Shown here: positions 20,045 to 63,700 of the stretch, in pieces | Layout of the letters: each line of letters begins with the position of its first letter | Numbering within the stretch: the first letter of the stretch is position 1 | Origin: Caulochytrium protostelioides | Lineage: Eukaryota; Chytridiomycota; Caulochytriomycetes; Caulochytriales; Caulochytriaceae | DNA length: 64,000 nt | NCBI GenBank assembly: GCA_003615045.1 | Contig: ML014184.1 | Coordinates: forward strand, 22,469 to 86,468 | Reading direction: 5' to 3' | Notes under the pieces: model-generated | Database searches by the model: none | What the model was told of the DNA's origin: nothing | The model's input: the letters and a program-made list of their open reading frames with translations, nothing else | Program-made: the position numbers and the translations under genes

Positions 20045-20110
20045 TAACACGCACATCATCCCCTCCATGGTGCCTTCCAGCCGTACCCACAGAGGCAATA
20101 CACATACGGT
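20045..20110 (-). other. conserved 3' tail of Fanzor copy A
   Basis: Noncoding sequence just past the copy A stop, alignable by eye with the tails of copies B-D. It carries TGCCTC (minus strand of 20092-20097) and GGCACC (20069-20074), then ATGTGCGTGTT, also found in copy D. Confidence 0.55.
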
Positions 20111-20600
20111 TCAGTGTCGGATGAGCTTGCCGACCATGGGCTGCAGCCGAGCTTGCCCGGGGTTGTGGCACACCGCCTCCGGTCTGACGGGTACGGCCAG
20201 GCAGCGTCGGATGTTCAGCGCGGCATGGAGATCGCGGTTCACCGACTTGTCGTTGGTAGCTTCACGCCACAGCAAACCTGGGACCACTGCCGCCGGCGTT
20301 GACAGGGTTTCAGGACCGCATGCGTCTGGGCATACACCCGGATCCTGCCGACCCGGTCGATGGACCTCGGCGCGGTCGGGCGGGCCCCCGCCCTGCGCGC
20401 GACGTTAACACTGCCGTCGTGTCCCCGATTTTCGCCTTTGTCAGGACCTGATTCGCCTCGGCATGCACCTGGGTCGTCCCGAACTCGTCGACCAGGATGG
20501 TGCGGAGCCGCTGAGCGCATGCCTGGTATGCCCGCGATGTTAGAACCGAGATTACGCCCTTGCCCTCGGTGGCTTCATCGTCAAATGCCTGATATAAGAG
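20045..20600 (-). pseudogene. Fanzor relic, copy A (C-terminal nuclease fragment)
   Basis: A minus-strand remnant of a Fanzor protein, the eukaryotic homologue of the TnpB RNA-guided nuclease. From about 20590 the translation reads SRAYQACAQRLRTILVDEF, the conserved segment before the zinc ribbon. After a frameshifted middle it resumes with GLLWREATNDKSVNRDLHAA and LNIRRCLAVPVRP, the RuvC-III region. The RuvC-III aspartate (RDLHAA) is kept. The expected cysteine before it is Arg (LLWR), and TTQVHAEAN holds no zinc-ribbon CxxC. The N-terminal ~half, including RuvC-I, is not visible upstream, and at least one frameshift separates the two parts. The terminal stop (TGA at 20113-20111) is followed by a tail shared with copies B-D. 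Family assignment rests on recalled motifs, not a search. Confidence 0.75.
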
Positions 20601-22247
20601 TATGTCTACCAACGCCCTGTTTGTCTTGGGGATTATCCCAGGGCGTGCACATTGTCGGCAGCTTTCTTGAAATGGGCTTGGCTTCAGGACTTTGTTTCAC
20701 ATTTGAGTCACCGCCGTCGATTATTTGGGCCAGGCGAAGGCGACGCCCTATGGGGCGCTGTGGGACAAGTTGAACGTGATATCTGTGGGAGGCGGTTTTG
20801 GTGCGGCAAGATAGGCGATGTTATGCTTTGGCTTGGTACGTTCTTACGCGGCGTCGCTAGCGGCGTCGCTACCTCAGCGTTGTGTAATCAAGAGCCTTCC
20901 ACCGGCACCCGGACTCATGGGGGAACCAGAGCAATGACGACACTATCCTTCGACACTATCGATGCCGAAGACGTGGCTTGCCGAACTCATGATGGGCTCC
21001 GGAATTTCAGTGGGTAGGGGTCTGTCCAGGTCCCACACTGCACAGCACCGCTATATGCAAACCTGGGTGGCTCCTCCTCTTCTATCGTGGAAAGTCACGG
21101 CATCGCGGTCGGCCACCCGAGACTACTACTCCTTTTCCCCGTAAAGCAGACTGAAGGTGAGGACCTCAATCGCTTCGGCCGAGCGTTGTTTCCAGAGCAA
21201 GCCTGCCTGATAAATGGATAAATGGACCCCCAAACTCCGTTGGGCGTCACATTGACGCCCCATGGGCGCAGTTCTTGGTCACGTTGAGCTCGTTCAGGAA
21301 AAGTTCCCCCGAGGCCTCCTCCCCTTAACTCCGCTCCGTTATCTTTTATATCTTTTCACCAAAAAAAAAAAAAAATAGTAAGACATGTGTAAACTTAGTG
21401 GTCCTAAAACTTAGTGACTTGGCAGCGACGCGACGACGGTGTCGAAGCGGCAGCTCTGCTGCCCGCGTGATAATGAGCCGGAATTTTTTTTGGACATCAG
21501 TTTTGGACAGCAGTTCTTTCGAGCTGGGGCTCCAGCGATGTGGCGATGCCCCCATGCCTAGACCGAAGCCGGCGATCATGCTTTGACCGAAGCCGGCGAG
21601 AAGTCCTCGCTTTTCAGACAGACATTTCTTGGGGATCGCTATCTGCATGGAGCCCAAGTGAGGGTCGTGATAAGGCCTACGCCCGCCGATGGCATCCTGG
21701 ACGGTGGGGCCCACTCTTGCAGGCGACACGTCGCAGTTCTCCGATCATGTCGTCGGGCAGCACAGGGTGCTGCCTCATGATTAGATGGCCAACGTCCGGA
21801 TGGGCACGGGCGTCGTGCATGCCGCTCGGCTGGCCGCGATCGGCCTATATAAAGACTTCTAGGGTGGTTTCTGAGTGACTCGTATTCGACAAGTCGTGAA
21901 CAAGCCATGCACGCGCTGTGGTTACCCGTGCCAGATGGATCCTTCCCTCCCGGTGGGTCATGCAGCCTACAGCATTCACATGTAGCGCCCTGACTCACAT
22001 TGGCATCATCGGCATCATCTCTGCAGCTTGGAACGCGTGGGCTAATCTAACTTTCTTACGGCTAATACGGCTCGGTCTGCCTTTTCCGGTGCGCTCCCTG
22101 CCGTACGCTTCGTCTGCTCGTTCACGCTCCTACCGCGCTCCTACCGCGTCCGTCTGACTTTCGTCGCCGCGACATTCGTTCATCTCCCCGGCTTCCCTGC
22201 TAGCGCCGTCGCCCCAGCCCACCTCGGACCCCCCCCATCATCGCATC
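20601..22247. other. lower-GC intergenic region
   Basis: No gene recognised. It has clearly more A/T than the flanking DNA. A run of about 15 A lies at 21360-21376, and short open frames without motifs are present. The last ~200 bp hold C/T-rich promoter-like sequence before the secreted-protein gene. Some of this may be decayed element sequence upstream of Fanzor copy A, but I could not align it to the other copies. Confidence 0.4.
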
Positions 22248-23780
22248 ATGCGGCGCCACTATGGGCTGCTGCTCGCCCTCTGGTCAGTCTTGTGTTTGTG
22301 TCACATAGTCCATGCCATCGAGCGATCGCAGAGCGACTCCTCGGAATCGGCCTTCGTCACCGACTATATCGAGCGCACCGATCAGGACGTTTTGTCCAAG
22401 GAATCCGCCGAATTTCTCTCCACTGTGTGGCCTCTACCGCCACACGTGGCACCATCCACGTCGCGAAGCAAAAACGTGCTGCGAACCACACACGGACTTC
22501 ACCGATACGATCTGGCCGATTTGGCTCCGAAACAGGTCCTAGCTGACCAGTGGCACGCCCATCTGAATGAGGTGATGAACAAGTTAGATACCCTTCTCGA
22601 TGGCAAACCGGAGGTGGTCGGGGCGCGTATCATCTCCAGCCTCTTCGACATCATCGGAGATCTCTTGCAACCGTCGTTTATCATGTCCCGTACGGAGACC
22701 CTTGTTCCCGCGATTTTCGCGTTTAATTCGTGGTTGCGCACCCCAACTGATCGAAAGGATTCGCCCTGGAATGACTTGAACGCGGCACTGACGAGGATCA
22801 ACGAGCAGCGACCGCTCCAAGCCTTCCCAGAGATCGAACGGACGATGCAGATTTACGTGGACTATATAGGCGCCCTGCAGACGCGCTGGTTAGCAGCGCA
22901 TCGGATCCGGTATTACGATACTCATACCGACGAGCTGTCCTTCACCGCTCAACGTTTGGGTGTCGCGTTGAGCCATCTCCAAATCCTGGCGTCAGATGCC
23001 GGAGAGACACTCGTCGCCAACAAGGCTGGTTGGCCACGCTCATTGCCTTTTCCCGCTAGGACGGAGGGTCTTAGCGAGGACTATATCAACCTTGATCGCG
23101 TTTTCGTCGGATCGCGGCTCTACAAGCTGGGGCCGGCGGAGTCGCTGAGGTCTGAGCCTGAGTACGCGCCCCAAGATGAGTTTGAATTTCGTGAGCCTGA
23201 TCATCGGATCGATATCTACGATTTTGCGGAGAAGATGCGGAAGGCAACACCTTTCGATGCGTTTGAACTGATCCTGAACGACGTCTTCCCGCTTGCCTCG
23301 GTTCCGAAAGACACGGACATCACTTATGACTTGGTCCGTGACCTTGCTAAGGCGATCATTGGATTGATCATGCCGCTCTACGAATTGGCGGACGCTCAGA
23401 GCGTCACGTTGCGACAAAAGGACTACACCACTGTTTACACGACAGCCGAGAAACAGTTCTGTAAAGCCAGCGGGAGAATACAGAAATGTATCGACCAAAT
23501 TCTGAAATTCGATCGAGTTTCACCGGTATTTGGGCAGCAGAGCATGTTTGTCTCGACGATGGTCCACCGGTTGCCGCTGATGAATGTCTCAGGCAATCGC
23601 TATGACCACCGGTCCTTTTTCGCGAAAGCCACCGGCACTCGTTATACGACCCCCGCAAGGAGCACGATCGCACGTCACGCTCCCACCCGTTCCCTCTCCT
23701 CACCTGAAGTAGCCGCATTGACAGCGCCCTCAGCGAGGTCGATCTTCAAGGCGACATCGATTGAAAACCTTCACTTCTAA
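22248..23780 (+). CDS. secreted orphan protein
   Basis: A single 510-residue frame starting at a clear ATG and encoding a signal peptide (MRRHYGLLLALWSVLCLCHIVHA, likely cut after about residue 23). The mature part has no transmembrane segment, few cysteines (FCKASGRIQKC near residue 410) and no family motif I know. Predicted structure would be mostly helical. Its base composition is lower in GC than the housekeeping genes, and it sits between two Fanzor relics. Recent origin, transfer or weak selection are possible, and an effector-like role would be speculation. The downstream end lies only ~20 bp from Fanzor copy B. A second small secreted protein sits beside Fanzor copy C, a similar arrangement. 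Confidence 0.75.
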   Translation: MRRHYGLLLALWSVLCLCHIVHAIERSQSDSSESAFVTDYIERTDQDVLSKESAEFLSTVWPLPPHVAPSTSRSKNVLRTTHGLHRYDLADLAPKQVLADQWHAHLNEVMNKLDTLLDGKPEVVGARIISSLFDIIGDLLQPSFIMSRTETLVPAIFAFNSWLRTPTDRKDSPWNDLNAALTRINEQRPLQAFPEIERTMQIYVDYIGALQTRWLAAHRIRYYDTHTDELSFTAQRLGVALSHLQILASDAGETLVANKAGWPRSLPFPARTEGLSEDYINLDRVFVGSRLYKLGPAESLRSEPEYAPQDEFEFREPDHRIDIYDFAEKMRKATPFDAFELILNDVFPLASVPKDTDITYDLVRDLAKAIIGLIMPLYELADAQSVTLRQKDYTTVYTTAEKQFCKASGRIQKCIDQILKFDRVSPVFGQQSMFVSTMVHRLPLMNVSGNRYDHRSFFAKATGTRYTTPARSTIARHAPTRSLSSPEVAALTAPSARSIFKATSIENLHF

Positions 23781-23800
23781 CCATCTTTACCTAAAAACGC

Positions 23801-24365
23801 GTTCCTGTTTGTCCACGGAGGGAACGGCAAGATCGGGGCGCTACCCTCTCGGGCCTACCAGGCGTGGGCCCAACGCTTGCGTACCGTCTTGGTCGACGGT
23901 CGAGGTCCGGGCGACCCTGGTGCATGCCGGGACGAACGAAATGCTGGCCGTGCCGATCACTCGCGCGTCCTGGGCCGGCGCGTCCCGGCGCGAGCCGAGG
24001 GTCGATCCACCGGGTCCGCAGGCCTCGGGCAAGCGTTCCCTCCACCGGGCCTCCGGTCAACCCGGCCCGCAGGATCCAGGTGTCTGCCCCGACGACCGTC
24101 GTCCTGAAATCCAGTCAACGCCGCCGCCAGGAGACCGTGGTCCGAGGGTCGCTGGGGTGTGATGCCATCCACGGCAAGCTTGCGACCGGCGATCTCAATG
24201 CCGCATTGAACATCCGGCGCTGCCTAGCGTTACCCGCGAGACCGATCGCGCGGTGCCGCCACCAGGTGGCAGCAACATTGTCACGCTCATCCTGATGCCT
24301 CGCGCGCGCTGCCTCGATGGGCGACCCCTCGGGGGGCACCCCCCTGGGTGGGGTTGGGTGGGGGG
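23801..24365 (+). pseudogene. Fanzor relic, copy B (C-terminal nuclease fragment)
   Basis: A plus-strand remnant of the same Fanzor family. The read begins with NGKIGALPSRAYQAWAQRLR and TVLVD; a small indel near 23905 then shifts the frame, and the next part reads AGTNEMLA in another frame. It resumes near 24090 with TTVVLKSSQRRRQETVVRG, SLGCDAIHGKLATGDLNAA and LNIRRCLALPARP. The RuvC-III aspartate is kept (GDLNAALNI) and one zinc-ribbon-side cysteine is present (SLGC). The N-terminal half is missing: the secreted-protein gene ends just upstream. The stop at about 24295 is followed by the shared tail. Confidence 0.75.
24296..24365 (+). other. conserved 3' tail of Fanzor copy B
   Basis: Carries TGCCTC (24310-24315) and GGCACC (24335-24340) at the same 24-25 nt spacing as copies A and D. 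A C-run/G-run hairpin (GACCCCTCGGGGGG) lies between the boxes. Confidence 0.55.
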
Positions 24366-25803: not shown

Positions 25804-26319
25804 ATGGGTGAAGCCGTGAAGAAGCAGTGGTGGGCCCGCCGGGCCTACTTCGGCCTGTTTTCGTTGCGCATCGGCGCGCTGATTTCGGCCTTGCTGAACA
25901 TCCTGATTGACATTCTGATGATCGTGCTCGCGATTGTCGGCATTGAGGCCTGGAAGTCGGGCAAGATTCAGCCCCGCGTTTTCGAGCAGCTGAACATCGA
26001 CCCGCTCGATAACTCGATGTCCAAATACCTGTGGTCGACCTTCGCCGTCTTCCTGGCGGACCTCGCGTTCAACATCACCGGCCTCGTGGGCGCGTGGAAG
26101 CGCGTGTTCATGGCTAACATCTGCTGGATCGCGTGGCAGTGGTTCCGCACGGCGATTCTCTTTGTCGCCTCGATTGTCCTGCTGGCCAACCACAAGTGGG
26201 CCTTCGGCGCCACCGCCCTCGCCTTGTCCTTTATCTTCTTCTACTTCACCATTGTCGCCACTGCCTTTGGCCAAGAGATGGATCTCAAGAAGAAGGCCCA
26301 CAAGAAAATCCACTACTAA
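25804..26319 (+). CDS. four-pass integral membrane protein of unknown function
   Basis: A 171-residue protein from an ATG in good context (CGCCATGG). Four hydrophobic segments are clear: about residues 22-46, 76-97, 100-126 and 128-152. The N-terminus is short (MGEAVKKQWWARRAYFGLFS) and the tail basic (DLKKKAHKKIHY). The loop between helices 1 and 2 holds a small polar domain (KIQPRVFEQLNIDPLDNSMS). Even codon use and strong helices suggest a conserved, expressed gene. The fold resembles small tetraspan proteins of fungal membranes, but I recognise no named family. It converges on the receptor-like gene downstream. Confidence 0.85.
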   Translation: MGEAVKKQWWARRAYFGLFSLRIGALISALLNILIDILMIVLAIVGIEAWKSGKIQPRVFEQLNIDPLDNSMSKYLWSTFAVFLADLAFNITGLVGAWKRVFMANICWIAWQWFRTAILFVASIVLLANHKWAFGATALALSFIFFYFTIVATAFGQEMDLKKKAHKKIHY

Positions 26320-29682: not shown

Positions 29683-32600
29683 ACCGCGCTGCCGCCCAGC
29701 GGTGGCGCGGGCGACGCTGGCGTCGTCAGGCACAGCCGGGGTCGCGCGCGCCAGGCGCAGCGGTCGTAAACCCGGTGGTGGCGGCGGCGGTGGCCGTTGC
29801 CCTGGACGGGGTCGTGGTGGGGGTATCGTGGCGGGGAGGGGCAGGCACCGCGGCGGCGAGGATCGGGAGGCGCTGCGGGGCCGCAGGGATGGCCGCTGTC
29901 GTCGCGGCGACCATGGCGCTGGGCACGAGCACGGGCAGGCGGCGGCGGCGGCGGCGGCCGAGGAAGACGCGGCAGACGGCGTGATCCGGACGCGGATCTG
30001 TCGCGGCGCCGCGGCGTCTGGCCGCATGCCCATGGGCGCACTCGTCGGCGTCGGCGTCGGCGTCGGGCCGGCCGCGAGTAGCGCTGCAGGCACGCCAGCG
30101 CTGGCGCAGGCGTGACGCGCCCGCGAGCGGGCGGGAGGCTTCGGCGGGCGGGACGCGGCCGAGCCCGTCGCGGGTTCCCCGGTCCACGAAAGCCCGCGCC
30201 GTGGGCGGAAAGGCGAGCGATCGAGAGCAATCGGGGAGGTGATGCAAAACGATGCAAAACGATGCAAAACGATGCAAAACGATGCAAAACGATGCGATGC
30301 AATGCGATGCGATGCGATGCAATGCGAGGCGAGGCGATGCAATGCGAGGCGAGGCGAGGCAATGCGATGCGAGGCGATGTGGGAGGGCGGGGAGAGGCGG
30401 GCGGTCGGTCGGTCGGGGACGGGGCCACCGCACCGCACCGCAAGGCTCTGCACCGTACTGCACCGTACTGCACCGCACCGCACCGCACCACACAGAGGCA
30501 AGGCGAGACGATAGGAGGCGTTGTGATGCCGAGAGGCCCCAGCGGCAAGTCTCCGCAAGCCGCAAGCGGATGCGGGCGATGGGTGGCCGGGCCGATGCGT
30601 CGACGTCCGCGGCAGGCGCACGGATGAATTCCAGGTATGGCACAGGACGGCGACAGCGATGTGCCGGCTTTTCAGGAGCGCCGCACCTACTGGCTGGACC
30701 AGGCTTCCTGCGGCCGCCAGGCCGTGTCGGCGGCCACCGAGCGTCTTAGGGCTGAAGCGGGCAGGCACGGCGGCGCCACCACACCGACCCGAGGTGGGAA
30801 AGAGGGGCTGCGGCTGAGCCGCGCTTGGCGATGGCCAATGCGCAAGGCGAGGGGCCGGGAGCGGGGCGAGCAGCCCAGCGCGCAGACGACCGGAGGGCCA
30901 CGACGAGGGATGGGAATCAGGGCTAGGGGACGCGGATCTGCGGGAGGCGATGCCGACAGGCCCATGTGGCGCACCCGTGGTGATGGCGTGAAGACCGTGC
31001 CAGCAAGGCGACGCCTGTGTGCGATCGTGGTTGCTCACGGATGCCGGACGGTGGACGGCGGACGGCCAACGGCGGCCAATGGCGATTGGCGGCAACCCGC
31101 TCTCCTCCGAAAGACAATGCGATGCCGTGCGGATGCGCGGGCGTATGGATCCCTATGTTCTTATCCTGACGCGCCGGAAGACGCGTCGCCGACGTCCTCG
31201 CAGTCACCGTCATCGACGTCGACGTGGTCGTCGGCGTGGTCGTCGTTGTCGGCCGACCGAGAAGCGGTGTCGCGACGCGCTTCGCCCTTCCTTGAGGAGA
31301 GCGCGGGCCATTCCACCCGAGCGCACGCCACGGCCGCCTGGGTGCCACCGAGTCTGTCGTGGGCCTTGCGCTTGCCGCTGTTTGTATGGGCCGACGGGCA
31401 TTTTGGCATTTTGGCATTTAGGGCATCCGCAGGTGGTTGAAGCCGTGCCCAGCGTGCGCCCCCGCCATCGCCTTCGCCCCTTTTTCAGGCCTTTTCGGGA
31501 TGATGCTGTTCGCCTGGTGGGCCAAACCGCGCGACTGCAGCTGACCGCCCACATCCGGGCAAGCTGTCGGCCTCCGAGTCCCCGTCGGGCCTGGACGGAG
31601 CGCGCGCCGCGACGGCCGGGCTGACGCGGCTCAAAACCCAAGTTTATACGGCCGTGACGCGCGGCATCGACGTGCAGCACGGCCCACGGCCCACGGCATA
31701 CGGCGGGTGCTGCGCATGTGCTGCGCATCGCATTGCCACCGCATCGCGTCGCATCCTGCCGGCGTCCCGTCGCTGCAGGGCGGCGGGATGTGGCTTTGCG
31801 GGCTGACGCCGCCTTCGCGCGAGACGGAACGAAAGCCGGCCGGGGCGTCAGCAGCAGCAACGACGAAGACCCTACGCGCCGGATCGAGCCCCACCGGCCC
31901 TCCTGACGCGTGCATCGCGCGGCGCATCCGCACAAAGGGGCGATCCCGCTTCAGCGCCCAAGCCCCTCCCCGGACGCGAGCCATCGCCGTCCTGGTGGCG
32001 AAAGAGCCTTAGCGGCAGGTCGTTTCAGGATACCGGTCTGGCCGGTCCTGGCCGCTCTTGGTGCACACGCGCCGCGCGGCAGGATCCCACACGCCGCAGA
32101 CGCGACCTGCAAGCGCCAGCGCACCTCCGGGCCAACATCTCCGAGACGGCGCCCGCAGGGGGCACCCACACGGACAGGAACCAAAACAGGGCGAGGCGCG
32201 TGGCATACGTTCCCCCCAGCACGAAGTCTCCTGACACCTACGTTCGACACGCTGGACTGCGGTGTTGATGATTGCCGCTGCACTTAACGCGGAGGTGGCA
32301 CGGTGAGGGTGGCATATTCTTTCTCGGCTGGACCGTCGGGGCCCCGTTTTCATGCCTACGGGATGTCGATGTGAACGCGTTTAGAGCCTTATTTATTTTA
32401 TTTCATTTTTGGAAAAATGCATCAGCGTCGGCAGCCCGAAGCGCCGTCGACTCGACCGCTCCGAGAAGCCGCAACGTCGAAACGGAGACGGTGGTCTGGC
32501 TGCGCCGCTGAAACACCATGCTGGGCGTCGCGGACACCGCCAAATCATATCCCGGCGTGGGCGACCACTATCGGGACTATCCGTTACTGGCCGCCAGATT

Positions 32601-33224
32601 GCCCACGCAGCGCCACCTCGGCGACCGCAGCATTTATATTTATTACTGCCGGCGTCATCGAGTACCATACCAATCTGAACAGTCATTCAATGCTTAGCTT
32701 CGAGGCGCGGGTCAAAAGTACCTGCGCGTCTTCCAGAGAATCAACGATCTGACGGGTCCGCAGCGCCTCTGGATGCTACGTCGGATCTGGGGATGGACGC
32801 CACGTGGATCCGGAAGCCGTGAAGTGGTTGCGGGTCATGGAGCAGTCGACGGCTGCGCACTGCAGTGTGCAAGGTCTCGAGGCGGAAAAAAACGCGCCGC
32901 CTCACGAGCTGAACAGCAAGGACACCTTGCATCATCTCGTGGGCCGCACTTTGCTCGTCTGGCGACAGCCAGGAGGCCACTGAGCCGCCGGCCGTCAAAG
33001 TAATGCCAGTGCGCCCTCTCTATCACCGTCGACATCAGCGTATTCTACGGCTTGCTGAAGGAATTCAAGGTGGTCTGCGACTGAGCGGCATTCAAGATTA
33101 TAGCCACAGAGCCGTGGGCGGCCACTGTGGCGTCCCGTAAGCTGGAAGGCAAGGACCACACGTTCTCTCATAGCAGCGACGGCGACGGCATCTGCGCATG
33201 CGTGCCTGTTTTTCTGGCGCGAGG
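29683..33224. other. 3.5-kb intergenic region
   Basis: No gene recognised. The part nearest the membrane-protein gene holds decamer and GATGC repeats; the rest is GC-rich with motif-free open frames. GC falls after about 32300, towards Fanzor copy C. Decayed N-terminal Fanzor sequence may lie in 32700-33220, but I could not identify a RuvC-I motif. Confidence 0.45.
30241..30377. repeat. (GATGCAAAAC)x5 decamer array and degenerate GATGC repeats
   Basis: Five perfect copies of the decamer GATGCAAAAC (30241-30290), followed by GATGC/GAGGC/AATGC pentamers to about 30377. The array lies ~560 bp upstream of the receptor-like gene start. A CACCGCACCGC repeat follows at 30425-30490. Confidence 0.95.
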
Positions 33225-33715
33225 AAAAGGTGGCCGACGCCGTGCCTACTATCAAGGCTGCCTCCGAGACAAAGAAACCCTTGGCAGGCAGCTTGGATGA
33301 GTACCGCATCCTCGGAAAAGACCCCCGGCAGAACTAATATTCTTATGGCTAAAGCAGTTCGACGGCCAATCGTCAGCTGGAAGCTGACCAGAAAAAAAGA
33401 AACCCCTGGTGGTCGCCTATGGCGCATCCAAGTTTACCCCCGGAGACAAGGGCGAGATCGCCGTTGCCGGGTCGTGAAACAAGGGCAACACCGGCGCTAG
33501 GGGATGTGATTCGAGGGTTGCTATGGTGTGGTCCCACTAACAGCAAGTTTGCGCGATCTCAATGCCGCGTTGAACATCGGATGCTGCCTGGCCTCACCCG
33601 TCAGAACTGCGGCGCTGTGCCGCATTCCCGGGCAAGCCCCCTGCAGCCCGTGGTCAGCAGGCTCAACCGGCCTCATGCGCTGCTGCCTCCTGGGGGGTAC
33701 CATGGATGATTGTAA
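33225..33715 (+). pseudogene. Fanzor relic, copy C (longest remnant, internal deletion)
   Basis: A plus-strand remnant of the same Fanzor family, reaching further upstream than the others. Frame fragments read VADAVPTIKAASETKK (~33230), MAKAVRRPIVSW (~33345), VVAYGASKFTPGDKGEIAV (~33400-33465), then a stop. The VDEF segment present in copies A and D is missing: the read jumps to VIRGLLWCGPTNSKF and, after a one-base frameshift, to RDLNAALNIGCCLASPVR. The RuvC-III aspartate and the RGLLWC cysteine are intact. The internal deletion, stop and frameshift make it non-functional. The small secreted-protein gene lies just downstream on the other strand. Confidence 0.75.
33661..33715 (+). other. conserved 3' tail of Fanzor copy C
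   Basis: Contains TGCCTC (33684-33689) and GGTACC (33696-33701), equivalent to the GGCACC box. Spacing is ~12 nt instead of ~24, so the intervening hairpin is deleted here. Confidence 0.45.
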
Positions 33716-33800
33716 TGAATTGCCCCCAGACCCTTATTTGTTAGTGAATCAGTTATCAGTCATCTAAGTCAGTTATATAAAAGGAAAGAAAGAAACGGAA

Positions 33801-40892: not shown

Positions 40893-40909
40893 ACGCGCTC
40901 TCTGGCGGA

Positions 40910-49000: not shown

Positions 49001-49485
49001 AGCCGGCCGCCTACGGCGCGGCGATCACGGCCGTCGCGGCCGGCGTGGGCGGCTTGCGGCCGCCGGGCTCGGCCCGCGGCGGCTACGGCGCTGCCAACGA
49101 ATCCGCCTCCCCAGCCGCGGCGGCGAGCCAACACGCTTACCCGCGCCCGATGTCGTCGGCCCCGGTCCCGCAGGCGTCGCCGGCCGCCCTGATGGCCGCC
49201 GCGCAGCCGGGCGCCGCGGCTGCCACGGGGGGCGCGAGCCCCGCGGGCATGGCGGCGGCGGCGGCGGCCCGCAAGAAAGCACCGCCGCCCGTGCCGCCGC
49301 CCAAGAAGCTGCCGCAGTTCCGGGCACTGTACGACTACGACGCCCAGGAGGCCGACGAGCTGACGTTGCGGACCGGCGATGTGGTCTACGTGACGCGCAA
49401 GGACGAGCAGGGCGGATGGTGGACCGTCTCGCTGCGCGGCAAGACGGGGCTCGTGCCGGGCAACTACCTCGAGGCCGTGGCCTAA
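46054..49485 (+). CDS. MYO1: class I myosin (fungal MYO3/MYO5 type)
   Basis: An actin-based motor of 1,143 residues that acts at cortical actin patches and in endocytosis. P-loop GESGAGKTEA (from residue 107), switch I NNNSSRFGK (from ~163), switch II DIFGFEIF and the actin-binding KPNESKRPRDW region are intact. The TEDS site is Ser-337 in RRGSAYNVPLN, the PAK-kinase target in fungal myosin I. One IQ motif (VVQRAWRLYKSRK, ~705) follows the motor, then a basic TH1 lipid-binding domain, an Ala/Pro/Gln-rich TH2-like stretch and a terminal SH3 (FRALYDYDAQEADEL to GLVPGNYLEA, ~1086-1141). It ends at the SH3 without the acidic CA tail that budding-yeast Myo3/5 use for Arp2/3. The start is a CCACCATG Kozak. 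A single intronless frame in ~3.4 kb is notable. Confidence 0.97.
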   Translation: MSFTWTSKNTAQNGVEDMVLLSKVSEDQITENLKKRISNDLMFTYIGPTLVCVNPYKKLPYFTEKEIEQYAGAQAYEHPPHIYAVADKMFQSMITDEENQCVIISGESGAGKTEAAKLVMNYIAAVSGRGGSHATVVEDVKRIILESNPLLESFGNAKTLRNNNSSRFGKYFEINFTKGGHPMGGKISNFLLEKSRVVQPGKGERNYHVFYQLTKGCDAKEREAYGMMDPNYFSYLNLSEEYNADGIDDRAEFMDLKKAMQVCAISPQNQHNLLSLVAGILHLGNVDFIEEGNNAVIADRQALAFPAYLFGVAETVLEEKLISRFMTTGGGIGRRGSAYNVPLNLEQARGTRDALAKAVYSRMFDWIVGAVNGAMAALAANLRERQILCLGVLDIFGFEIFDKNGFEQFCINYVNEKLQQIFIELTLKQEQEEYAREGIQWTPIAYFNNKIVVDLIESKKPPGVMAILDDVCFTMHAVSEGADLKFVSKLDGAIHNHPHYAGQQTHFTISHYAGKVRYNCDGFTESNKDTLYRDLIQLMQGSNNPFIQALFPETFDDTDRKRPTTVSHKIKTQSQELVDTLTRCTPSYIRCIKPNESKRPRDWDGPRVEHQVRYLNLKENINVRRAGFCYRNYFAKFLRRFAILTPQTWPQWSGDVRQGIQHIMNSVNMAADEWQLGREKVFIKSPESLFLLEEQRDRKFHGYAKVVQRAWRLYKSRKYFLDLRAKAAEVVLNKKERKRFSINRDFVGDYLNFLDNPVLKAMVPKGEKVFFADMMTKYDRKMKSTRREILVTQSHVYMVGQEKMKDGPNKGQWIKIVKRRIPMHAIQKISLSTRADDFLVLNVANDYDTVFENLFKTELLTVLSEQFQATVGRPLALEFTDTIVYSVKKTTFQRASTATLTFALSNAAEVQPGVRNLPIIQPHNHGATILVAPGLPSSTQPSISRRLRNTGSRPAHAQSHQHQYQHQQQAAYPAAAPAGIPAQPAAYGAAITAVAAGVGGLRPPGSARGGYGAANESASPAAAASQHAYPRPMSSAPVPQASPAALMAAAQPGAAAATGGASPAGMAAAAAARKKAPPPVPPPKKLPQFRALYDYDAQEADELTLRTGDVVYVTRKDEQGGWWTVSLRGKTGLVPGNYLEAVA

Positions 49486-49759: not shown

Positions 49760-50851
49760 CTACTCTTCCAGCACAACTGGGTTTTCGACCGCCACGACCG
49801 AAGCATCGTTTGTGCCCTTGGCCGCGGCGCGCGCCTTGGTGGCGCTCAGCATGGCCTGCTCGCACCGCGCGACAGCGTCCTTGATCGCTTTGGTGAGATC
49901 GGCGGCCTTCAGCGCCGCCAAGCGGCCGCACTGCAAGACGCGCTTGAGGTCCATGGCGCAGCCGCCGTCTTTGCGCAGCGCGCACAGCTCGCCGTTGGCA
50001 TTGAGCACGAAGGCCATCTTGCCGCCGCCGCCGCAGGTCGCGGCGATGCCTGTGGCGGGGTCGACGGGCGCCGCCACCGAGTCCGGCGTCGCGGGGCTCG
50101 CGGCGATCTCCTCGCCGCGCGTCGGGTCGAGGACGACGTCGTGGCCGTCGTTGAAGAACGCGAATGTCACGCACACTGGCAAGTGGTGCATTGTCAGCGG
50201 CACGGGCGGCCGCTCGTCCGGGCCGTAGACGCGGACAGAGGGGCCGCCGGAGGCGGCCAGCGCCGCAGTCGCCGCGTCGGCGGCAGCGCCCGCCGACGGC
50301 AAGAAGTCGGTGGACGGGGTATGCTCGACGCCAACGTCCGGGCGACGGAAGTGCAGCAAGGCCGCGAGGGCGGCGACGCAGGCGGCGTCGAGGATGTTGC
50401 CGCCGGCGTCGAGCACGCGGATATCGATACGCACGTGCCAGGCGACCTCGCCCGCGATCACGCTGAGGCTCTCGAGGTCGACGGCGCCGGAGCGGCGCAG
50501 CGCGCGCTCGAGCAGCCGCGACACGCTTGCTTCCTCCTCGTTGCGGTGCACCGACGCCTGGGCGGCTGAGAAGTCCGGCGCGAGCTCGAGCGCGATCGCG
50601 AGCACACCTTCGTTCGGGGCGAGGATCGCCGGCCGCCCGAGCTCGGCGCTGACGACGGCCTGGACCTTGGTGCTGTTGCCGGCGGCGGCGTCCGCGGCGC
50701 CCAGGTGGACCTCCACCGCGCCGGGCGTCGACGCGAAGTGGAACTTGAGCGGACGGAATGCCGTCGGCGCGCGGCCGTCCAGTCGCAAGCCCTGGGCCGC
50801 CGCCGTGCGGATGAACGCCGTTTCGGCGTTCGACGGCGCTGTCGAGGACAT
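49760..50851 (-). CDS. RRP45: exosome core subunit RRP45 (EXOSC9)
   Basis: A ring subunit of the RNA exosome, 363 residues from the ATG at 50851. It has the RNase PH-like fold without catalytic residues. The start MSSTAPSNAETAFIRTAA then LRLDGRAPTAFRPL is the RRP45 hallmark. Other family matches: ELGRPAILAPNEGVLAIALE, LLERALRRSGAVDLESLSVI, AWHVRIDIRVLDAGGNILD, AALAALLHFRRPDVGVE and LPVCVTFAFF. A Gly-rich loop (ATCGGGGKMAFVLNANGELCAL) precedes the C-terminal helix. The tail is short, without the long C-terminal extension of human EXOSC9. It converges on the myosin gene, with 274 bp between stops. Confidence 0.92.
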   Translation of the reverse strand: MSSTAPSNAETAFIRTAAAQGLRLDGRAPTAFRPLKFHFASTPGAVEVHLGAADAAAGNSTKVQAVVSAELGRPAILAPNEGVLAIALELAPDFSAAQASVHRNEEEASVSRLLERALRRSGAVDLESLSVIAGEVAWHVRIDIRVLDAGGNILDAACVAALAALLHFRRPDVGVEHTPSTDFLPSAGAAADAATAALAASGGPSVRVYGPDERPPVPLTMHHLPVCVTFAFFNDGHDVVLDPTRGEEIAASPATPDSVAAPVDPATGIAATCGGGGKMAFVLNANGELCALRKDGGCAMDLKRVLQCGRLAALKAADLTKAIKDAVARCEQAMLSATKARAAAKGTNDASVVAVENPVVLEE

Positions 50852-52190
50852 GATTTGAAGGTCGCGACGGTCAGCAGGATCCGTGGACGCGTCAGCCGGC
50901 GTCGAACGTCGTGGCGCAGCACAAGCGGCAGCAGCAGCAGGAGCAGCAGGAGCAGCAGAAACAAGAACTATGAAGGGTATACGACGGTCCTTGGAGGCGG
51001 CGCTGCTCGCGTCGGGGAGGTGTGGCAGGAGGCTACAGGCGGGAGACAGGATCCCGACGGTCCATGAGCGCGCAGGTATGTGGCCACATCGGTGCTGACG
51101 AATAGGCCGGCAATGCCATGCGCTGCGCGTGCATCGATGCATGATGGCCCCGCCATGATGACGGAAGGCCTCAGACCCCTCGCATCGAAGACCCCCTCGT
51201 CTGTGATACGTCGGAACCGCGGGGCGGTCGGCTTGGGCAAAACCCCGCCACAGGGGCTTGGGCGGCCGCGCTGTCGGAACCCGCCGGCGCCGCTTGAGGC
51301 CTCGCGCCCACTCCGACCGGCAGTCTGGCGAGGGGCTTGGCATCGTTGGTGGCCGGACCGGCCATCCGGCAGGCGAGACGGCAGATCGGCTGCGGGCGCT
51401 GTGGGATATGGAGGCCTCCCAACGATGGGTTTCTATGCCACATGCGGAGGTTGTAGCATTGTCGAAGGATACTGCATGTGCGTGCGAACAGAGCGTCAGT
51501 GATCCTCGTGGCGCGTCATGGCTCCAGCCATCCAGCGATCCGGTTGAGCGCCTGCCCATCGGTCTCTAGGATCTGATGTGCAGACGCTCATGCCGAGAAG
51601 AAAGCATGGCAAAGGAGGTGAAAGATGTCTTCTACAGCGCAGGCACGGTGACTCTGCTGAGTCTGTTTTCGCTTTGTCGAAGCGACATCTACCCGTCTCA
51701 TCATTTCGCGCAGCGATGCGACGGGTATCTGTTGCTTCGGTATGCTGGTGTCGTCTACGCTGGCTGCTCTTGGCGATGGGGAGGAAGCGAGAGGATGAGG
51801 CGTGGCGGTCGCTCCGTCCCGCCGGGTTGCTCGCCCCCCCGACCCCACCCGCGCCGCGCCGAAGCGCCGCAAGGCGGCATCCATGGGCCATCGAACGGGG
51901 CCGAGCCAAGCCGGCCACTCGTCCCGCCTCCCGTCCTCCCCATGGCCCCCGACACTCGCGGCGCTCGTGAAGCATTCGGGCGAGTGCTCACCCGAGGCCG
52001 TGATAATGGCATCACGTCGCGCCCGACCAGCGTGCCTAACGTGCCGCTCCCTGCAGACCTTCCTGTTGGGCTCGCTCAAGCTGGCCACGCGCGACGTCAT
52101 CCGGGAAAGGAAGCGACCGCGCTCGCCAACGCCGCCTCTTGCTTGACCTCGTTTTTCTCCCCGTCCGATTGCGTTGTATCTGTCACCACC
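50852..52190. other. divergent intergenic region between RRP45 and QCR9
   Basis: No gene recognised. It holds the promoters of two divergent genes. Just upstream of RRP45 is a CAGCAG/GAGCAG repeat (about 50925-50960). Confidence 0.5.
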
Positions 52191-53387: not shown

Positions 53388-54405
53388 ACGCCGCGCGATG
53401 CACATACCGTTATCGTCGCGACCGCGTGATGGTGGCGCGACTTCGCTGCCTTGATGGGTCAGTCCTTCACGGCGCCTGCTCGGTTGCGTCTCTTGCTTCG
53501 CACCGCCGCTTCCTTTCCTTCTCCTTTTGTACATCCTTCCCCTTTAAACGCGCATAAAACCCCGAAGCCGAAACGTCGATAGGCACGGCGCGATCGTGAC
53601 TGTACATGATGATGGAGCGTGGATGATGTCTCAGCCGCCATGTGATGTGGAGGCAGCGTGTTCGCTGATGGCGCCGCATAGGGATCGGCTGATGAGGTGG
53701 ACGAAACAGCAAATCGTGACCAGGGGGGCGTCGCTATATACTGGTATTTCACATCGTTGTGACAAAATATCGCTCATTCCAGAAAGATCGACAAATGCAT
53801 ACCACATGCATCGAGAGTGTTTATGCGCGGTGTTGTAGGCTTTTGGGTCAATCGATATTACTTGGGACGCCCAATTTCCCATCGCCCATCCCATCGTCAG
53901 TCCACAAGCCCCTCCCCGCCCGACGACAAGCATGTGCCGGGGGGACCGCGAGGCTTGTAGTGCCGGATACAGCCCGCAGGGGTTTTGACAAGGCCCTTCT
54001 CCCTACATCCAGTGGCCTGTCCAGGACTCTGCGAACCAGACAGGGAATCATGAATGCTTGAGAGGATGGCATCGGCATCGTGACGGCATCCCGTATAACT
54101 CCGCTTCAAGACTTCGCTTCAGCCAAAGGGCCGATGGGCCTTTTCTGCCCCGAGGTGAACCCCTGTGCTTTGTATGACTTCGAAGCCCATCTGGCGCCTA
54201 TCGTCGTCTGCCCTCCGACCTGAGCTGACCCAGACGCATCGATACTATTTCTCGCCCAACTGACACCGACGGAACAGCAGACATTTTGATGGGCGATTGA
54301 ATGTAGCGCCTCCTCCTGCGGTTTCTTGTCGTACCGCTCACCGCTCACCGCTTTCCGTGGCACTGTCGCTCGCTGACCGCTGCCGGATCCGTGGCCATCG
54401 CGAAG
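53388..54405. other. lower-GC intergenic region upstream of PRI1
   Basis: No gene recognised. It is AT-richer than the coding regions (53550-54350), contains no repeat array, and its open frames lack motifs. Confidence 0.45.
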
Positions 54406-56805
54406 ATGGCATCGCCTGAACCGACCCCGGCGGAGGCTTCCCCCTCAACCCCTGCAGCGTCAGCATCACCGATTCTGATGGCCGACAGCGCACTGCCTGA
54501 AGCGTCTCCGGATGTCGCGATGGACGATACGACTTTGTCTGAAACGGCTGTCCCCGCTGCCGATGGCGCTGACCAGGAGACAACCAATGCTGCGGATGCC
54601 GCTAGCGCGCCTGGCGCCGACAAAACAAGTGCTGCTTCCGCGGACTCGTCACCATCGCCGCTCCAGTCGGCGGATCCGTCGTCACCGGTCGTCGTGGTCG
54701 CCGCGGCCCAACCATCACAAGATGGTGCCGTCGCGGATCCGCCGGCAGCCGATGTCGTGACGGCGAATGGGGATGCGGCTTCGACCGCCGCCGCCGCCGC
54801 CACAGTGGCCGCTGCCGCAGCAGCTGAGCGGGACTCAACATCAGCCACCTCGCCCGCATCCGGCATCGCCGCTGCTACCGGTGGCGCCGAAGTGGATGAG
54901 ACATGGCTCGAAGATGACTTGACGGAAGCGGACCTTGCCGGCATGGAAGAAGACATGGAGGCCTTCATGGCCTCGCAGTCTCAGCCGGCCTCCTCCCAGC
55001 CCACCGCGGCGGCCTCACCCGTCCCCGCGACGTCGGCATCGTCACAGCCGTCCGCGCCGCCGCAGTCGACCACGCAGCGTGCTCCTGCGTATACGGCGCA
55101 ACCGGCGCCGAAGCCCGCGAATCCCATCCTCCAGGCCAAGCGTGATGCCGAGAAGGCTTTCCTCGAGAAGCAGGCCCAGCTGCTCGAAGCAAGGGAGAAG
55201 CGGCTCCGTGCTGCCCCTGCTCCCGGGCCGAGCCTCAGTCTCCAGCGGCAGCAGGCTCGTCAAGCCATGGCACACACGATGGACGACGCGACCGTCAAAA
55301 AACTCTCGCCCGAGGAGGAGGAGGCCCTTATCAATGCTGGAATCGAGGAAATGATGCAGAACACTGAATTTGAGGAGATGCTGCCTATCTTTTATCGAAC
55401 CTTCTTCCCCACCCACACAATGATCCGGTGGCTCAGCTATGGCCGTCCCATCAAGAACTACCTCGCCTACCGCGAATTCAGTTTCACTCTGCCAGGCGAT
55501 GCCTGGGTCCGCTACCAAAGTTACGCGTCGGAGGCCGACTTCCGCGATGCTTTGCGGCAGAAAGTACCGCACAAGATCGACATCGGCCCCGTGTACACGG
55601 TGCGACCGCGTGATCGACACATGTACCGTCCGGAAGCCTGTGAAGCGCGTGAGCGTGAGCTCGTCTTTGATATCGATATGACGGACTACGACGATGTGCG
55701 CACTTGCTGCACCGGCGCCGACATGTGCGACAAGTGCTGGATCTTCATGACCGCGGCCCGGGATGTCCTTGATGATGCCCTGCGCCAGGACTTTGGCTTC
55801 AAGCATATTCTTTGGGTCTACTCAGGCCGTCGTGGGTTGCACGGCTGGGTCTGCGACCATCGCGCCCGCGTACTTTCCGCGGACGCGCGTGGCGCCGTTG
55901 TCTCCTATCTCTCCGTCAAGCTCACGAGCCCGGCCCCTGGCGGGTCAGGCACTGGCGGCGGCGCCTACGGTGATATGCTGGCGCGGCCCGGTTTGCGGCG
56001 CGCGTATCGCCACCTGCTTCATTATTTTGAAACCGCGCTGCTGGCGTCGCAAGGCTACTTGACCGATGCGCGATGGGAGGCCACGCTGGCCACGTGGCTG
56101 CCACATGCACCGCAGTGCCGCGCCAAGTTGGCGGCCAAATTCAGCCAGCGCAGCCATTCGGACCCGTGGGACCGATGGACACTGCTCCGAGCTGCCCATG
56201 AAGCCGGCGGGATGTCCGGCGCCGCTGGGGAGACGCTCTCGCTACCGGCCCTCATCTTCTTCCTGCTGTACCCGCGTCTTGATGCCGCCGTCTCCCGCGG
56301 CGTGAACCATTTACTCAAGAGCCCGTTCGTAGTGCATCCTAAAACCGGCAAGGTCTGCGTGCCGATCGATCTGCCCGTCTCGTTCCTCAACGCCGAATCA
56401 GACCGTCCCGCGACGGTCAATGCCACGGCTAGCAGCGATACCGATTCGGCCGATGCTGACGCGACCAAGAAGGGACCGGCCCGCATCCCCTTCCGTCACG
56501 ACGCTGTGCCGACCTTGACGCAGCTTGTCAGCGAGCTCAATCACGCGGCTGCCGACGCGTCGCAGCCCGCTAATGGCGAAAAGCGCAAAGGCGTGTCGTG
56601 GCGCGATACTGCGCTCCGACCCTACGTCCTCTTTATGGAATCCTTTATCGACGGCGTGCTGGCCGATGAACCCGGCGTGGTGGCCAAGACTGCGCCTGTC
56701 TCGGTCGCAGCCAAACAGGCGGCGGCCGACGCCCCGACCACGCCCAGCAAAGGGGCTGCTCTAGTCACATCGTCGTCCGCGATGGCGGAAGATCTTGACT
56801 TCTAA
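54406..56805 (+). CDS. PRI1: DNA primase small subunit with long N-terminal extension
   Basis: The catalytic subunit of the polymerase alpha-primase complex, which makes RNA primers. The archaeo-eukaryotic primase core begins near residue 326 (LPIFYRTFFPTHTMIRWLSYG). Seen in order: REFSFTLPGDAWVRYQSY, FDIDMTDYDDVRTCC with the catalytic Asp pair (~421-427), the zinc-binding cluster CCTGADMCDKCW (~434-445), WVYSGRRGLHGWVCD (~473-484) and a conserved C-terminal helical part (LYPRLDAAVSRGVNHLLKSPF). Total length is 799 against ~410-420 usual. The extra ~320 N-terminal residues are Ala/Ser/Pro-rich, with an acidic segment (ETWLEDDLTEADLAGMEEDM, ~167-186) and a charged helix (AKRDAEKAFLEKQAQLLEAR). 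The frame opens with a GTG, so the first ATG (54406) is used; an ATG at 55267 would give ~512 residues. It converges on SLX4. Confidence 0.93.
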   Translation: MASPEPTPAEASPSTPAASASPILMADSALPEASPDVAMDDTTLSETAVPAADGADQETTNAADAASAPGADKTSAASADSSPSPLQSADPSSPVVVVAAAQPSQDGAVADPPAADVVTANGDAASTAAAAATVAAAAAAERDSTSATSPASGIAAATGGAEVDETWLEDDLTEADLAGMEEDMEAFMASQSQPASSQPTAAASPVPATSASSQPSAPPQSTTQRAPAYTAQPAPKPANPILQAKRDAEKAFLEKQAQLLEAREKRLRAAPAPGPSLSLQRQQARQAMAHTMDDATVKKLSPEEEEALINAGIEEMMQNTEFEEMLPIFYRTFFPTHTMIRWLSYGRPIKNYLAYREFSFTLPGDAWVRYQSYASEADFRDALRQKVPHKIDIGPVYTVRPRDRHMYRPEACEARERELVFDIDMTDYDDVRTCCTGADMCDKCWIFMTAARDVLDDALRQDFGFKHILWVYSGRRGLHGWVCDHRARVLSADARGAVVSYLSVKLTSPAPGGSGTGGGAYGDMLARPGLRRAYRHLLHYFETALLASQGYLTDARWEATLATWLPHAPQCRAKLAAKFSQRSHSDPWDRWTLLRAAHEAGGMSGAAGETLSLPALIFFLLYPRLDAAVSRGVNHLLKSPFVVHPKTGKVCVPIDLPVSFLNAESDRPATVNATASSDTDSADADATKKGPARIPFRHDAVPTLTQLVSELNHAAADASQPANGEKRKGVSWRDTALRPYVLFMESFIDGVLADEPGVVAKTAPVSVAAKQAAADAPTTPSKGAALVTSSSAMAEDLDF

Positions 56806-56912
56806 ATCTCTGCTACTCCCGTGATATTCGTAATATCACAATGACATGCATGTAGCTTCTCGGGGGTTCCCATGGTCGCGATTGTATAAGTCGTCGTGAT
56901 CAACAATGATTG

Positions 56913-60107: not shown

Positions 60108-60364
60108 AGCACGGCGAAGGTCACGCGCAAGGCGGCGATGCGCCTGCACGAGCACTTGGTGTTCAGCGCACTGTAGACCGCTACACGAAGGAGTCGACCG
60201 TCGGAAAAGAGACAAAAATTGATAGACACCAGTCCCGCCGCATTCAGGTGAAGTCGCGACATCGCGGAGAAGCCAACAAGTCAAAACATCAGATCGAGTA
60301 AGTACAAGCTGGCATCTCCCGTCAGTAATTAGTAATGGTGCGCAAAAAAAGCTCACGAAGCCTA

Positions 60365-62830: not shown

Positions 62831-63108
62831 CACCGCATGAACTGCATCGGCTATCAACCGCACACAGCGTCGCGTGAACAGTGGCACCAGATGAGTGTGA
62901 TGACGAAGGCCACGCCGTCGTCGCTGCACGGATGTGCGCGGACGTCCGATCAGCCGGTGTGAAGTGGCGACAGTCACGTCACAAATAGAGAACGCAATGT
63001 GGATCGGCGAAGTATGATCACTTGAGGTACGTCCATGTCATTGTGCAAAACTGATCCAAGGATCGCTCCATCGATAGATGAGCCGATATTTATTTTGCTC
63101 CCCGAAGC
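62831..63108. other. SLX4 upstream region
   Basis: Short promoter-side stretch between the SLX4 start and Fanzor copy D. No gene visible. Confidence 0.4.
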
Positions 63109-63175
63109 AACACGCACACCATGCCCTTGGTGGTGCCCCTCAAGGGTCCCCCACCGAGGCAGTACTCATTTCGGT
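63109..63175 (-). other. conserved 3' tail of Fanzor copy D
   Basis: Contains TGCCTC (minus strand of 63156-63161) and GGCACC (63132-63137), with a CCCTTGAGGG hairpin between them, and ends in GTGTGCGTGTT, also found at the end of copy A. Confidence 0.55.
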
Positions 63176-63700
63176 TCAGCGACGGATGAGTTTGTCAATG
63201 TTGAGCTGCAACCTAGTTTGCTCTGGGGATGCACAACACTTTCGGCCTGACCAGCAAAGCCAGACAGCGTCGGATCTTCAACGCGGTATTGAGACTGCGG
63301 TTCACCAACTTGCCGTTGGTAGCTTCACACCACAGCCAATCTCGGACCACAGTCCCCTGGCGCCGACGTTGACCGGGTTTGAGGACCACACTTGTCGGGG
63401 CATCCCCCCCATGGTCCTACGGACCGGGTTGGCCGGCGTCGGCGCGGTCGGGGTCCCGGGTTGGCACCTTGGTGAGGATGCCATTCGTCTCGGGAAGCAC
63501 CTGGGTCGTCTGGAACTCGTCGACCACGATGGTGCGGAAGCGCTGGGCGCACGCCTGGTATGCGCAAGCTGTCGGGACAGCGATCTCGCCCTCGTCGCCG
63601 GTGAGAGCAAACTTGGCTGCGCCCTAAGCGATCACCACTTCAGCGACGACGGGCACCATCGCCGTGCCCTCCGGTGCTCTTCGAGCGCGCTTCCTCCGAG
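63109..63700 (-). pseudogene. Fanzor relic, copy D (C-terminal nuclease fragment)
   Basis: A minus-strand remnant, the best-preserved middle section of the family in this window. One frame reads VAEVVIA, an in-frame TAG (63626-63624), then GAAKFALTGDEGEIAVPTA, YQACAQRFRTIVVDEF and QTTQVLPETNGILTKV. After a shift it continues VVLKPGQRRRQGTVVRDWLW, CEATNGKLVNRSLNTAL and KIRRCLALLVRP. The RuvC-III aspartate has become serine (NRSLNTAL, codon AGT at 63296-63294), so this copy is catalytically dead as well as broken. The first zinc-ribbon cysteine pair is absent; one cysteine of the later side (WLWC) is kept. Sequence above 63700 may belong to the element but could not be matched. Confidence 0.75.

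What the first reader, a model, noticed from the sequence alone, without database searches (positions are those of the whole stretch)
20045..63700. Four dispersed, decayed Fanzor (eukaryotic TnpB-like) nuclease copies in one 64-kb window
Translations at 20045-20600 (-), 23801-24365 (+), 33225-33715 (+) and 63109-63700 (-) share segments diagnostic of Fanzor: SRAYQACAQRLRT, VDEF.TTQV, RGLLWC and NRDLNAALNIRRC. These match the end of the RuvC core and the RuvC-III region. All copies lack the N-terminal half and carry stops, frameshifts or deletions, so the family was once active here. A full-length relative may exist elsewhere in this genome. The family call is from remembered motifs; the inter-copy similarity is directly visible.
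Basis: partly seen in the sequence, partly recalled or inferred. Interest (0 to 1): 0.8.

Follow-up and report, generated by a model that had tools for sequence, protein, structure and literature searches.

The report
Relics of a Fanzor transposon family
Four broken gene copies in this chytrid-fungus DNA are remnants of a mobile element that once spread to hundreds of places in the genome and carried an enzyme of the Fanzor type (RNA-guided DNA cutters), from a branch that appears to have lost the usual zinc finger.

Summary
The four loci are real, homologous and Fanzor-related. The genome is Caulochytrium protostelioides. They belong to a dispersed, old family: 179 sites match a 3'-end motif and 45 a 5'-end motif, with 0 in controls. 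Copy C runs 32517-33669 and does not lack its N-terminal half. No window copy keeps all three catalytic residues. A modelled intact relative (P0002) folds like SpuFz1, PpFz1 and GtFz1. The D/E/D triad stands in 43 of 43 aligned relatives, but none of 117 testable relatives has a CxxC zinc-finger pair, a feature called strictly conserved in 2013. The C299 copy outlines a ~3.8-kb element: 5' end with a possible hairpin, ~1.5-kb non-coding leader, broken Fanzor ORF, A-rich 3' end. Copies survive better at the 3' than at the 5' end, some with internal deletions, as Bao and Jurka described for Chlamydomonas CRe-1,2,3 (Helitron2). I infer copying that starts at the 3' end and often stops early; Helitron2-like copying is a lean, LINE-mediated retroposition a close rival. 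No transposase partner was found; one of the searches had no working control.

The parts
20040..20573 (-). Copy A: 5'-truncated relic, element-body coordinates ~1907-2572 (Glu block VDEF and NRD block kept, RuvC-I absent), reaches the common 3' end region
   Evidence: DNA; tblastn and blastn; genome family
23807..24280 (+). Copy B: relic of the C-terminal part only; third Asp kept (TGDLNAALNIRRC), Glu block lost; last ~100 bases of the element not recognised
32517..33669 (+). Copy C: longest copy in the window, body coordinates ~557-2494 with gaps; contains N-terminal region, the DP of the RuvC-I motif near 33320-33325, and RDLNAAL at 33552-33569; Glu block missing
   Evidence: motif positions
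63109..63664 (-). Copy D: 5'-truncated relic with VDEFQTT (63501-63524); third Asp replaced (NRSLN); 3'-end motif kept at 63115-63137
   Evidence: 3' motif (C74:85583-85605 = window 63115-63137)

Best explanation
The four loci are dead copies of one high-copy Fanzor1-type element of Caulochytrium protostelioides. SHOWN: the family is dispersed through the genome; intact homologues elsewhere carry the D/E/D triad with DPG and the alternative Glu, and the one modelled has the Fanzor1 fold; the C299 copy outlines an element of ~3.8 kb (5' end with a possible hairpin, ~1.5-kb non-coding leader, one broken Fanzor-like ORF, A-rich 3' end); among the copies sampled the 3' end survives much more often than the 5' end. 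INFERRED: when alive, the protein with a 3'-end omega-RNA acted as an RNA-guided nuclease as SpuFz1 does; the element was moved in trans by machinery that starts copying at the 3' end and often stops before the 5' end. The class of that machinery is undecided; I lean to Helitron2-type rolling-circle copying (~0.45), as proposed for CRe-1,2,3 of Chlamydomonas, over LINE-mediated retroposition (~0.35). The family then died and decayed.
For: Inter-copy similarity. Genome-wide family: 607 and 1218 first-look candidates, of which 40 and 71 were scored; motif counts 179 (3') and 45 (5'), reversed controls 0 and 0. Relatives: 185 proteins at E <= 1, best 3.4e-91. Fold: AF2 model of P0002, pLDDT 91; Foldseek ranks 1-7 all Fanzor1, best E 3.6e-21, SpuFz TM 0.68-0.72. 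PDB profile search finds only three Fanzors. D377/E542/D586 in 43 of 43 aligned relatives, DPG in 41 of 43. End survival with mid-element seeds: 20 of 28 copies reach the 3' end, 5 of 29 the 5' coding start, Fisher p 5e-5. Internal-deletion subfamily: in 6 of 12 leader-X loci read, body similarity starts at the RuvC-I region. Common 5' boundary in 25 of 37 matching places. A-run of 4 or more in 20 of 34 3' tails against 2 of 55 control stretches. One copy, L033, has a 14-bp duplication with one mismatch at its truncation point; 1 of 2550 mismatched pairs scores as high. Published precedent with the same protein group and pattern. Codon positions 1/2/3 differ 0.193/0.158/0.223 from C299.
Against: Helitron2 marks not met: no asymmetric terminal inverted repeat (observed 6.5, shuffles 6.54); no TTTT before any of 23 5' ends, and only 1 of 23 with three or more T in the four flanking bases; no PF14214 hit, though no control rings; only two PIF1-type genes, both open. 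TSDs not enriched overall (permutation p 0.41, 51 copies); apart from L033, L058 and L010 score at a level reached by 46 of 2550 control pairs, i.e. about one expected. The 5' hairpin register slid by -3 pairs 119 and by +3 105 of 161 cells, against 139. A proposed 3' stem shows no covariation beyond shuffles (82.8% against 82.6%). The 3' region is not better conserved than the body. Five of six 5' ends followed have no Fanzor 3' end within 1.5 kb, so copies without the 3' end exist; 8 of 28 mid-seeded copies also miss it. With 3' seeds, 24 of 24 reach the 3' end by construction. The zinc finger is missing. Leader and full length rest mainly on C299.
Confidence: 0.75

Rival explanations
1. The Fanzor transcript was copied by a LINE (target-primed reverse transcription in trans), giving 5'-truncated retrocopies with an A-rich tail and target-site duplications.
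For: One-sided 5' loss; 20 of 34 3' tails hold a run of four or more A against 2 of 55 control stretches, often followed by TA-rich sequence; a 14-bp duplication at the truncation point of L033; the genome holds LINE-like reverse transcriptases, one with a long open frame (type and upstream endonuclease judged by eye from recalled motifs).
Against: The LINE 3' end read in three of four copies (C33, C311, C145) does not resemble the Fanzor 3' end apart from the A-run; a common 5' boundary and 5'-end-only copies are not expected; no overall TSD enrichment.
Confidence: 0.35
2. An ordinary cut-and-paste DNA transposon whose copies have decayed; the 5' raggedness is erosion plus internal deletion.
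For: Copies are old (68-82% identical to C299); some copies lack the 3' end as well; internal deletions are typical of non-autonomous DNA transposons; SpuFz1 elements have inverted repeats.
Against: Loss is strongly one-sided with mid-element seeds; 3' motif four times commoner than 5' motif at equal stringency; no inverted match between the ends beyond shuffles.
Confidence: 0.15
3. The loci are not Fanzor but a chance resemblance or an unrelated RNase H-fold protein.
For: Fragments of a broken copy hit nothing significant in Pfam, NCBIfam or the PDB, and PF07282 had no match in the genome.
Against: (PF07282 over its cut-off in P0109).
Confidence: 0.01

Closest known systems
CRe-1, CRe-2, CRe-3 Fanzor1 elements of Chlamydomonas reinhardtii (Bao and Jurka 2013, PMC3627910; sections 5, 6, 8, 9 and passages read)
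   Same: Fanzor1 in an element without transposase; frequent 5' truncation and internal deletions with almost all copies intact at the 3' end; TSDs at truncated copies (here one good case); the nearest named relative is from the volvocalean alga Tetrabaena
   Different: No ATIR, no TTTT target preference and no partner Helitron found here; copies far older; CRe ORFs are split into exons
SpuFz1 / SPu-1 of Spizellomyces punctatus (PDB 8gkh, 9ceu)
   Same: Chytrid host, same fold by the modelled relative (TM 0.68-0.72), D/E/D triad, many protein-less sister loci in the genome
   Different: SpuFz1 sits between 30-33-nt inverted repeats, has a CCCC zinc finger and intact copies; here no inverted ends found, no zinc finger, no intact copy among those scored
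PpFz1 of Parasitella parasitica (PDB 9cf0)
   Same: Best PDB sequence match to the relatives' profile (3.7e-18); also from a mycoparasitic fungus; also carries an insertion in its nuclease part
   Different: PpFz1's insertion is a folded domain binding cyclophilin (passages) and it shows CPKC after the Glu block; here the insert is 122-295 nt in the loop where the zinc finger should be
Ghost Spu-1 loci (Saito 2023, PMC10432273, passages read)
   Same: Loci keeping the 3' (omega-RNA) end without an intact protein gene
   Different: Ghost Spu-1 loci keep both inverted repeats and a strongly conserved omega-RNA region; here the 3' region is no better conserved than the dead ORF

Membership tests
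Fanzor1 | TnpB/Fanzor fold | tested here: met
   Model of relative P0002 (51% identical to the C299 read-through over the searched region): Foldseek top 7 are Fanzor1 structures. Tested on one relative, not on a window copy.
Fanzor1 | DPG motif in RuvC-I (Yoon 2023, PMC10711439) | tested here: met
   41 of 43 aligned relatives; DPG somewhere in 112 of 117; DPGRTN in the C299 copy; window copy C shows KDP
Fanzor1 | Alternative catalytic Glu just upstream of the zinc-finger position, then Asp in RD | tested here: met
   E542 and D586 in 43 of 43 relatives; aligned with DEFRT/DEYKT and NRD of PpFz1 and SpuFz1
Fanzor1 | C4 zinc finger between Glu and RD (called strictly conserved by Bao and Jurka 2013; 'many' by Yoon 2023) | tested here: not met
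   CxxC in 0 of 43 aligned rows and in 0 of 117 testable of 120 listed relatives; in 8 of the 117 the stretch read is under 20 residues, so the test is weak there. P0109 nevertheless passes, and P0023 nears, the PF07282 cut-off.
Fanzor1 | Omega-RNA from the 3' end and RNA-guided cleavage | not testable with these tools
   Needs small-RNA data and an assay; a candidate 3' stem showed no covariation beyond shuffles
Helitron2 | 5' terminal hairpin | tested here: inconclusive
   139 of 161 cells paired, but 119 and 105 of 161 when slid by -3 and +3; mean energy z -1.4 over 23 ends
Helitron2 | Asymmetric terminal inverted repeats | tested here: not met
   Observed mean 6.5 against 6.54 in shuffles, 34 tails; 5' and 3' ends were not from the same copies
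Helitron2 | Insertion after TTTT | tested here: not met
   TTTT in 0 of 23 flanks, three or more T in 1 of 23
Helitron2 | RepHel protein in a partner element | tested here: inconclusive
   PF14214 0 hits but no control rings; two PIF1 genes, both open
LINE retrocopy | 5' truncation, A-rich tail, variable TSD | tested here: inconclusive
   One-sided 5' loss and A-runs in 20 of 34 tails seen; TSD convincing in one copy only, no overall enrichment

The most novel reading that the evidence does not exclude
A zinc-finger-less Fanzor1 clade, found in a green alga, in environmental sequences and in a chytrid, that was amplified by copying from the 3' end and so scattered hundreds of protein-less 3' ends, each abutting its own potential 14-20-nt guide: a genome-wide bank of ghost guide loci that a single live Fanzor could have used in trans.
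Probability: 0.2. Interest if true: 0.7.

Novelty: new variant of a known kind. Interest (0 to 1): 0.42.

Why it matters
It adds a chytrid genome littered with Fanzor1 relics, shows a Fanzor1 clade that keeps the catalytic triad while lacking the zinc finger once called constant, and gives a second host in which Fanzor1 copies survive mainly as 3' ends. If 3'-first copying is general for transposase-less Fanzor1 elements, it would explain how protein-less guide loci arise, which bears on the open question of what Fanzor does for its transposon.

Tried and rejected
Family and structure searches with fragments of a broken copy found nothing significant; the route that worked was a read-through query, then intact relatives, then their profile and fold. 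PF07282 in the genome gave no hit. I first read the ragged 5' ends as LINE retroposition; the LINE 3' end did not match and the literature showed the same pattern for Helitron2-borne Fanzors, so LINE became the rival. ATIR test negative. TSD test negative overall. Covariation of a 3' stem not supported. Rfam on ten stretches found only a tRNA on C299 and one match below its gathering score. Leader X looked at first like an unrelated repeat; its repeated junction with the RuvC-I region and its place upstream of C299's ORF made it part of the element. Extra conservation of the 3' region, expected if ghost guides stayed in use, was not seen. Literature: searches for Fanzor alone (82 papers, 40 listed), with Chlamydomonas, with retrotransposition/non-LTR, with fungi/chytrid terms, with zinc finger plus TNB, and for Caulochytrium; in the listings and passages seen I met no account of Fanzor in Caulochytrium (0 mentions in the main text of PMC10432273) or of a zinc-finger-less clade. 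Supplements could not be read.

On the required check I ran. It weakened two TSD cases (L058, L010), added the A-run control, and led me to lower the best explanation from 0.8 to 0.75 and to move the lean from about 0.5/0.3 to 0.45/0.35 (Helitron2/LINE). The leader length was corrected from ~1.2 to ~1.5 kb.
Full report
WHAT IS THERE. Better bounds are A 20040-20573 (-), B 23807-24280 (+), C 32517-33669 (+) and D 63109-63664 (-). Copy C, with stops and gaps, reaches back to about residue 101 of the relatives, so 'all copies lack the N-terminal half' is wrong. None of the four keeps the whole catalytic triad: A has the Glu and third Asp but no RuvC-I, B only the third Asp, C the DP of RuvC-I and the third Asp without the Glu block, D the Glu only. 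GC falls to 57-59% in the 2-kb bins around A, B and C against 66-70% in the neighbouring bins; D shows no such dip.

WHICH GENOME. G000 has 20.9 Mb in 337 contigs. The protein search returned P0076, CXG81DRAFT_23488 of Caulochytrium protostelioides, on a contig of 260677 bases, the length of contig C6; the first 141 residues of P0076 read letter for letter in a translation of C6 locus L016. So the host is this mycoparasitic chytrid (Ahrendt 2018, PMC6784888, passages read).

HOW MANY. With copy A as query, 41 matches were listed from 40 scored of 607 first-look candidates; with relative P0003, 96 matches from 71 scored of 1218. A 23-base 3' motif with up to 3 mismatches occurs 179 times and a 23-base 5' motif 45 times, with 0 for both reversed controls. 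The family is old: copies differ by 11-15% from the majority base. No full-length, stop-free copy was among those scored; the best match is C226:11032-12123, residues 245-609 with one stop, a separate lineage that keeps DPGRTN and VDEFRTS and lacks the loop insert (L086).

WHAT THE PROTEIN IS. Fragments of a broken copy find nothing significant in Pfam, NCBIfam or the PDB. A read-through of the C299 copy finds 185 proteins at E <= 1 (120 listed); the best named one is from the volvocalean alga Tetrabaena socialis (3.4e-91), then come metagenomic proteins P0002-P0006 of 617-629 aa at 47-51% identity. P0109 passes the PF07282 cut-off (26.6 against 26.3 bits) and P0023 comes close (25.2). An alignment of 43 of the 120 listed relatives (A1) gave a model of P0002 with pLDDT 91 whose first seven Foldseek hits are SpuFz, PpFz and GtFz; as a profile it finds only those three in the PDB at E <= 1. 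D377, E542 and D586 are invariant in 43 of 43 and DPG stands in 41 of 43: the DPG plus alternative-Glu fingerprint of Fanzors (PMC10711439, section 22 part 1 and passages read). SpuFz1's triad is D383, E541, D606 (PMC11423790, passages read).

THE MISSING ZINC FINGER. Bao and Jurka called the C4 zinc finger strictly conserved (PMC3627910 section 6). In this clade there is no CxxC between Glu and RD in any of 43 aligned rows or in any of the 117 of 120 listed relatives where the block could be read; in 8 of those 117 the stretch is under 20 residues and the test is weak. In the Caulochytrium family that loop carries 122-295 extra bases in all 15 rows that could be measured (L020 and L021 are the same sequence on two contigs, so 14 distinct). 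A second variable stretch with 33-bp repeats (3.5 units in C299) lies just before RuvC-I; L049 gave no such array.

ELEMENT ANATOMY. The C299 copy shows the longest structure: 5' end at ~2434-2448, coding similarity from ~3910 to ~6120, 3' end near 6236, hence ~3.8 kb with a ~1.5-kb leader. A 381-base 5' query matched 37 places and in 25 of them the match starts at the same boundary (first 20 query bases). Of 23 ends read at base level 15 begin T[G/A]TCG[T/C]; they can fold GTCGTCG with CGGCGAC in 139 of 161 cells, but registers slid by -3 and +3 still pair 119 and 105 because the stem has a 3-base period. Leader segment X was found at 25 scored places; in 6 of the 12 loci read, body similarity begins at the RuvC-I region, a shared internal deletion. 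Of six 5' ends followed for 1.5 kb, one (C2) reached a Fanzor 3' end and five did not.

HOW IT SPREAD. With seeds in the middle of the element (best 30 loci of 40 scored of 158 candidates), 20 of 28 copies reach the 3' end and 5 of 29 the 5' coding start (Fisher p 5e-5; the reference copy and contig-limited ends left out). With 3' seeds 24 of 24 reach the 3' end, which is by construction, and 0 of 23 the 5' coding start (L001 and four loci shared with or duplicated in the other set left out). A run of four or more A is in 20 of 34 3' tails against 2 of 55 control stretches. TSD search over 51 copies is negative overall (p 0.41). L033 has a 14-bp duplication with one mismatch exactly at its truncation point; 1 of 2550 mismatched pairs scores as high. 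L058 and L010 (11 bp each) score at a level reached by 46 of 2550, about one expected among 51. Bao and Jurka report the same picture for CRe-1,2,3: 5' truncation with internal deletions, intact 3' ends, TSDs of 7-19 bp mainly at truncated copies, read as one-ended rolling-circle copying by Helitron2. Our elements fail or leave open their other Helitron2 marks: no ATIR, no TTTT, no Rep found with a control that does not ring. LINE-like reverse transcriptases exist in the genome (type judged by eye) and the A-rich tail would suit them, but the LINE 3' end read in three of four copies is different. I hold 3'-first copying as fairly well supported, and Helitron2 over LINE as a lean only (about 0.45 against 0.35).

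WHAT IT DID. By homology to SpuFz1 the live protein should have used an omega-RNA from the 3' end, whose guide is the flanking host DNA (inference; Saito 2023, PMC10432273, passages read). Truncated copies keeping the 3' end are anatomically like the ghost Spu-1 loci. Against present use: the 3' region is no better conserved than the body and a candidate stem has no covariation beyond shuffles. Codon positions 1, 2, 3 differ by 0.193, 0.158, 0.223 from C299 over 55 copies, so the copies come from sources under some protein-level constraint.

VERDICT. Real, homologous, Fanzor1-like relics; reader right on the family, wrong on copy C. The clade is a zinc-finger-less variant of a known kind; the 3'-anchored pattern was known from Chlamydomonas and is here seen in a fungus.

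Noticed in passing
L087 (C33:148250-148650): A LINE copy ends in an A-run and is followed at once by Fanzor sequence at the RuvC-I region: a LINE appears to be inserted in a Fanzor copy.
   Followed up: partly
L077 (C234): LINE-like reverse transcriptase in a long open frame (one search lists 1165 aa open), possibly a young LINE.
   Followed up: no
P0076 / L016 (C6 ~206,800): The deposited gene model CXG81DRAFT_23488 joins a Fanzor relic fragment to other downstream sequence: annotation artefact or exonisation.
   Followed up: no
L112-L116: Five copies of the element's 5' end (similarity ~100-230 bp) run into other sequence, partly with long open frames, with no Fanzor 3' end within 1.5 kb.
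   Followed up: partly
L051 and L106; L104, L108, L109, C299: Two 5' ends (L051, L106) share their upstream flank, and four others share a CGCGACAGT flank, so several copies sit in repeated or duplicated DNA.
   Followed up: no
window 30221-30385: Degenerate GATGC/AAAAC short tandem repeat array.
   Followed up: no
window 46054-49485, 49763-51559, 54391-56802: Ordinary host genes: class I myosin with TH1 and SH3, an RNase PH-type protein, and a DNA primase small-subunit domain protein.
   Followed up: no
window 22248-23780: Open frame of 510 aa without Pfam match lying in the low-GC stretch between copies A and B.
   Followed up: no
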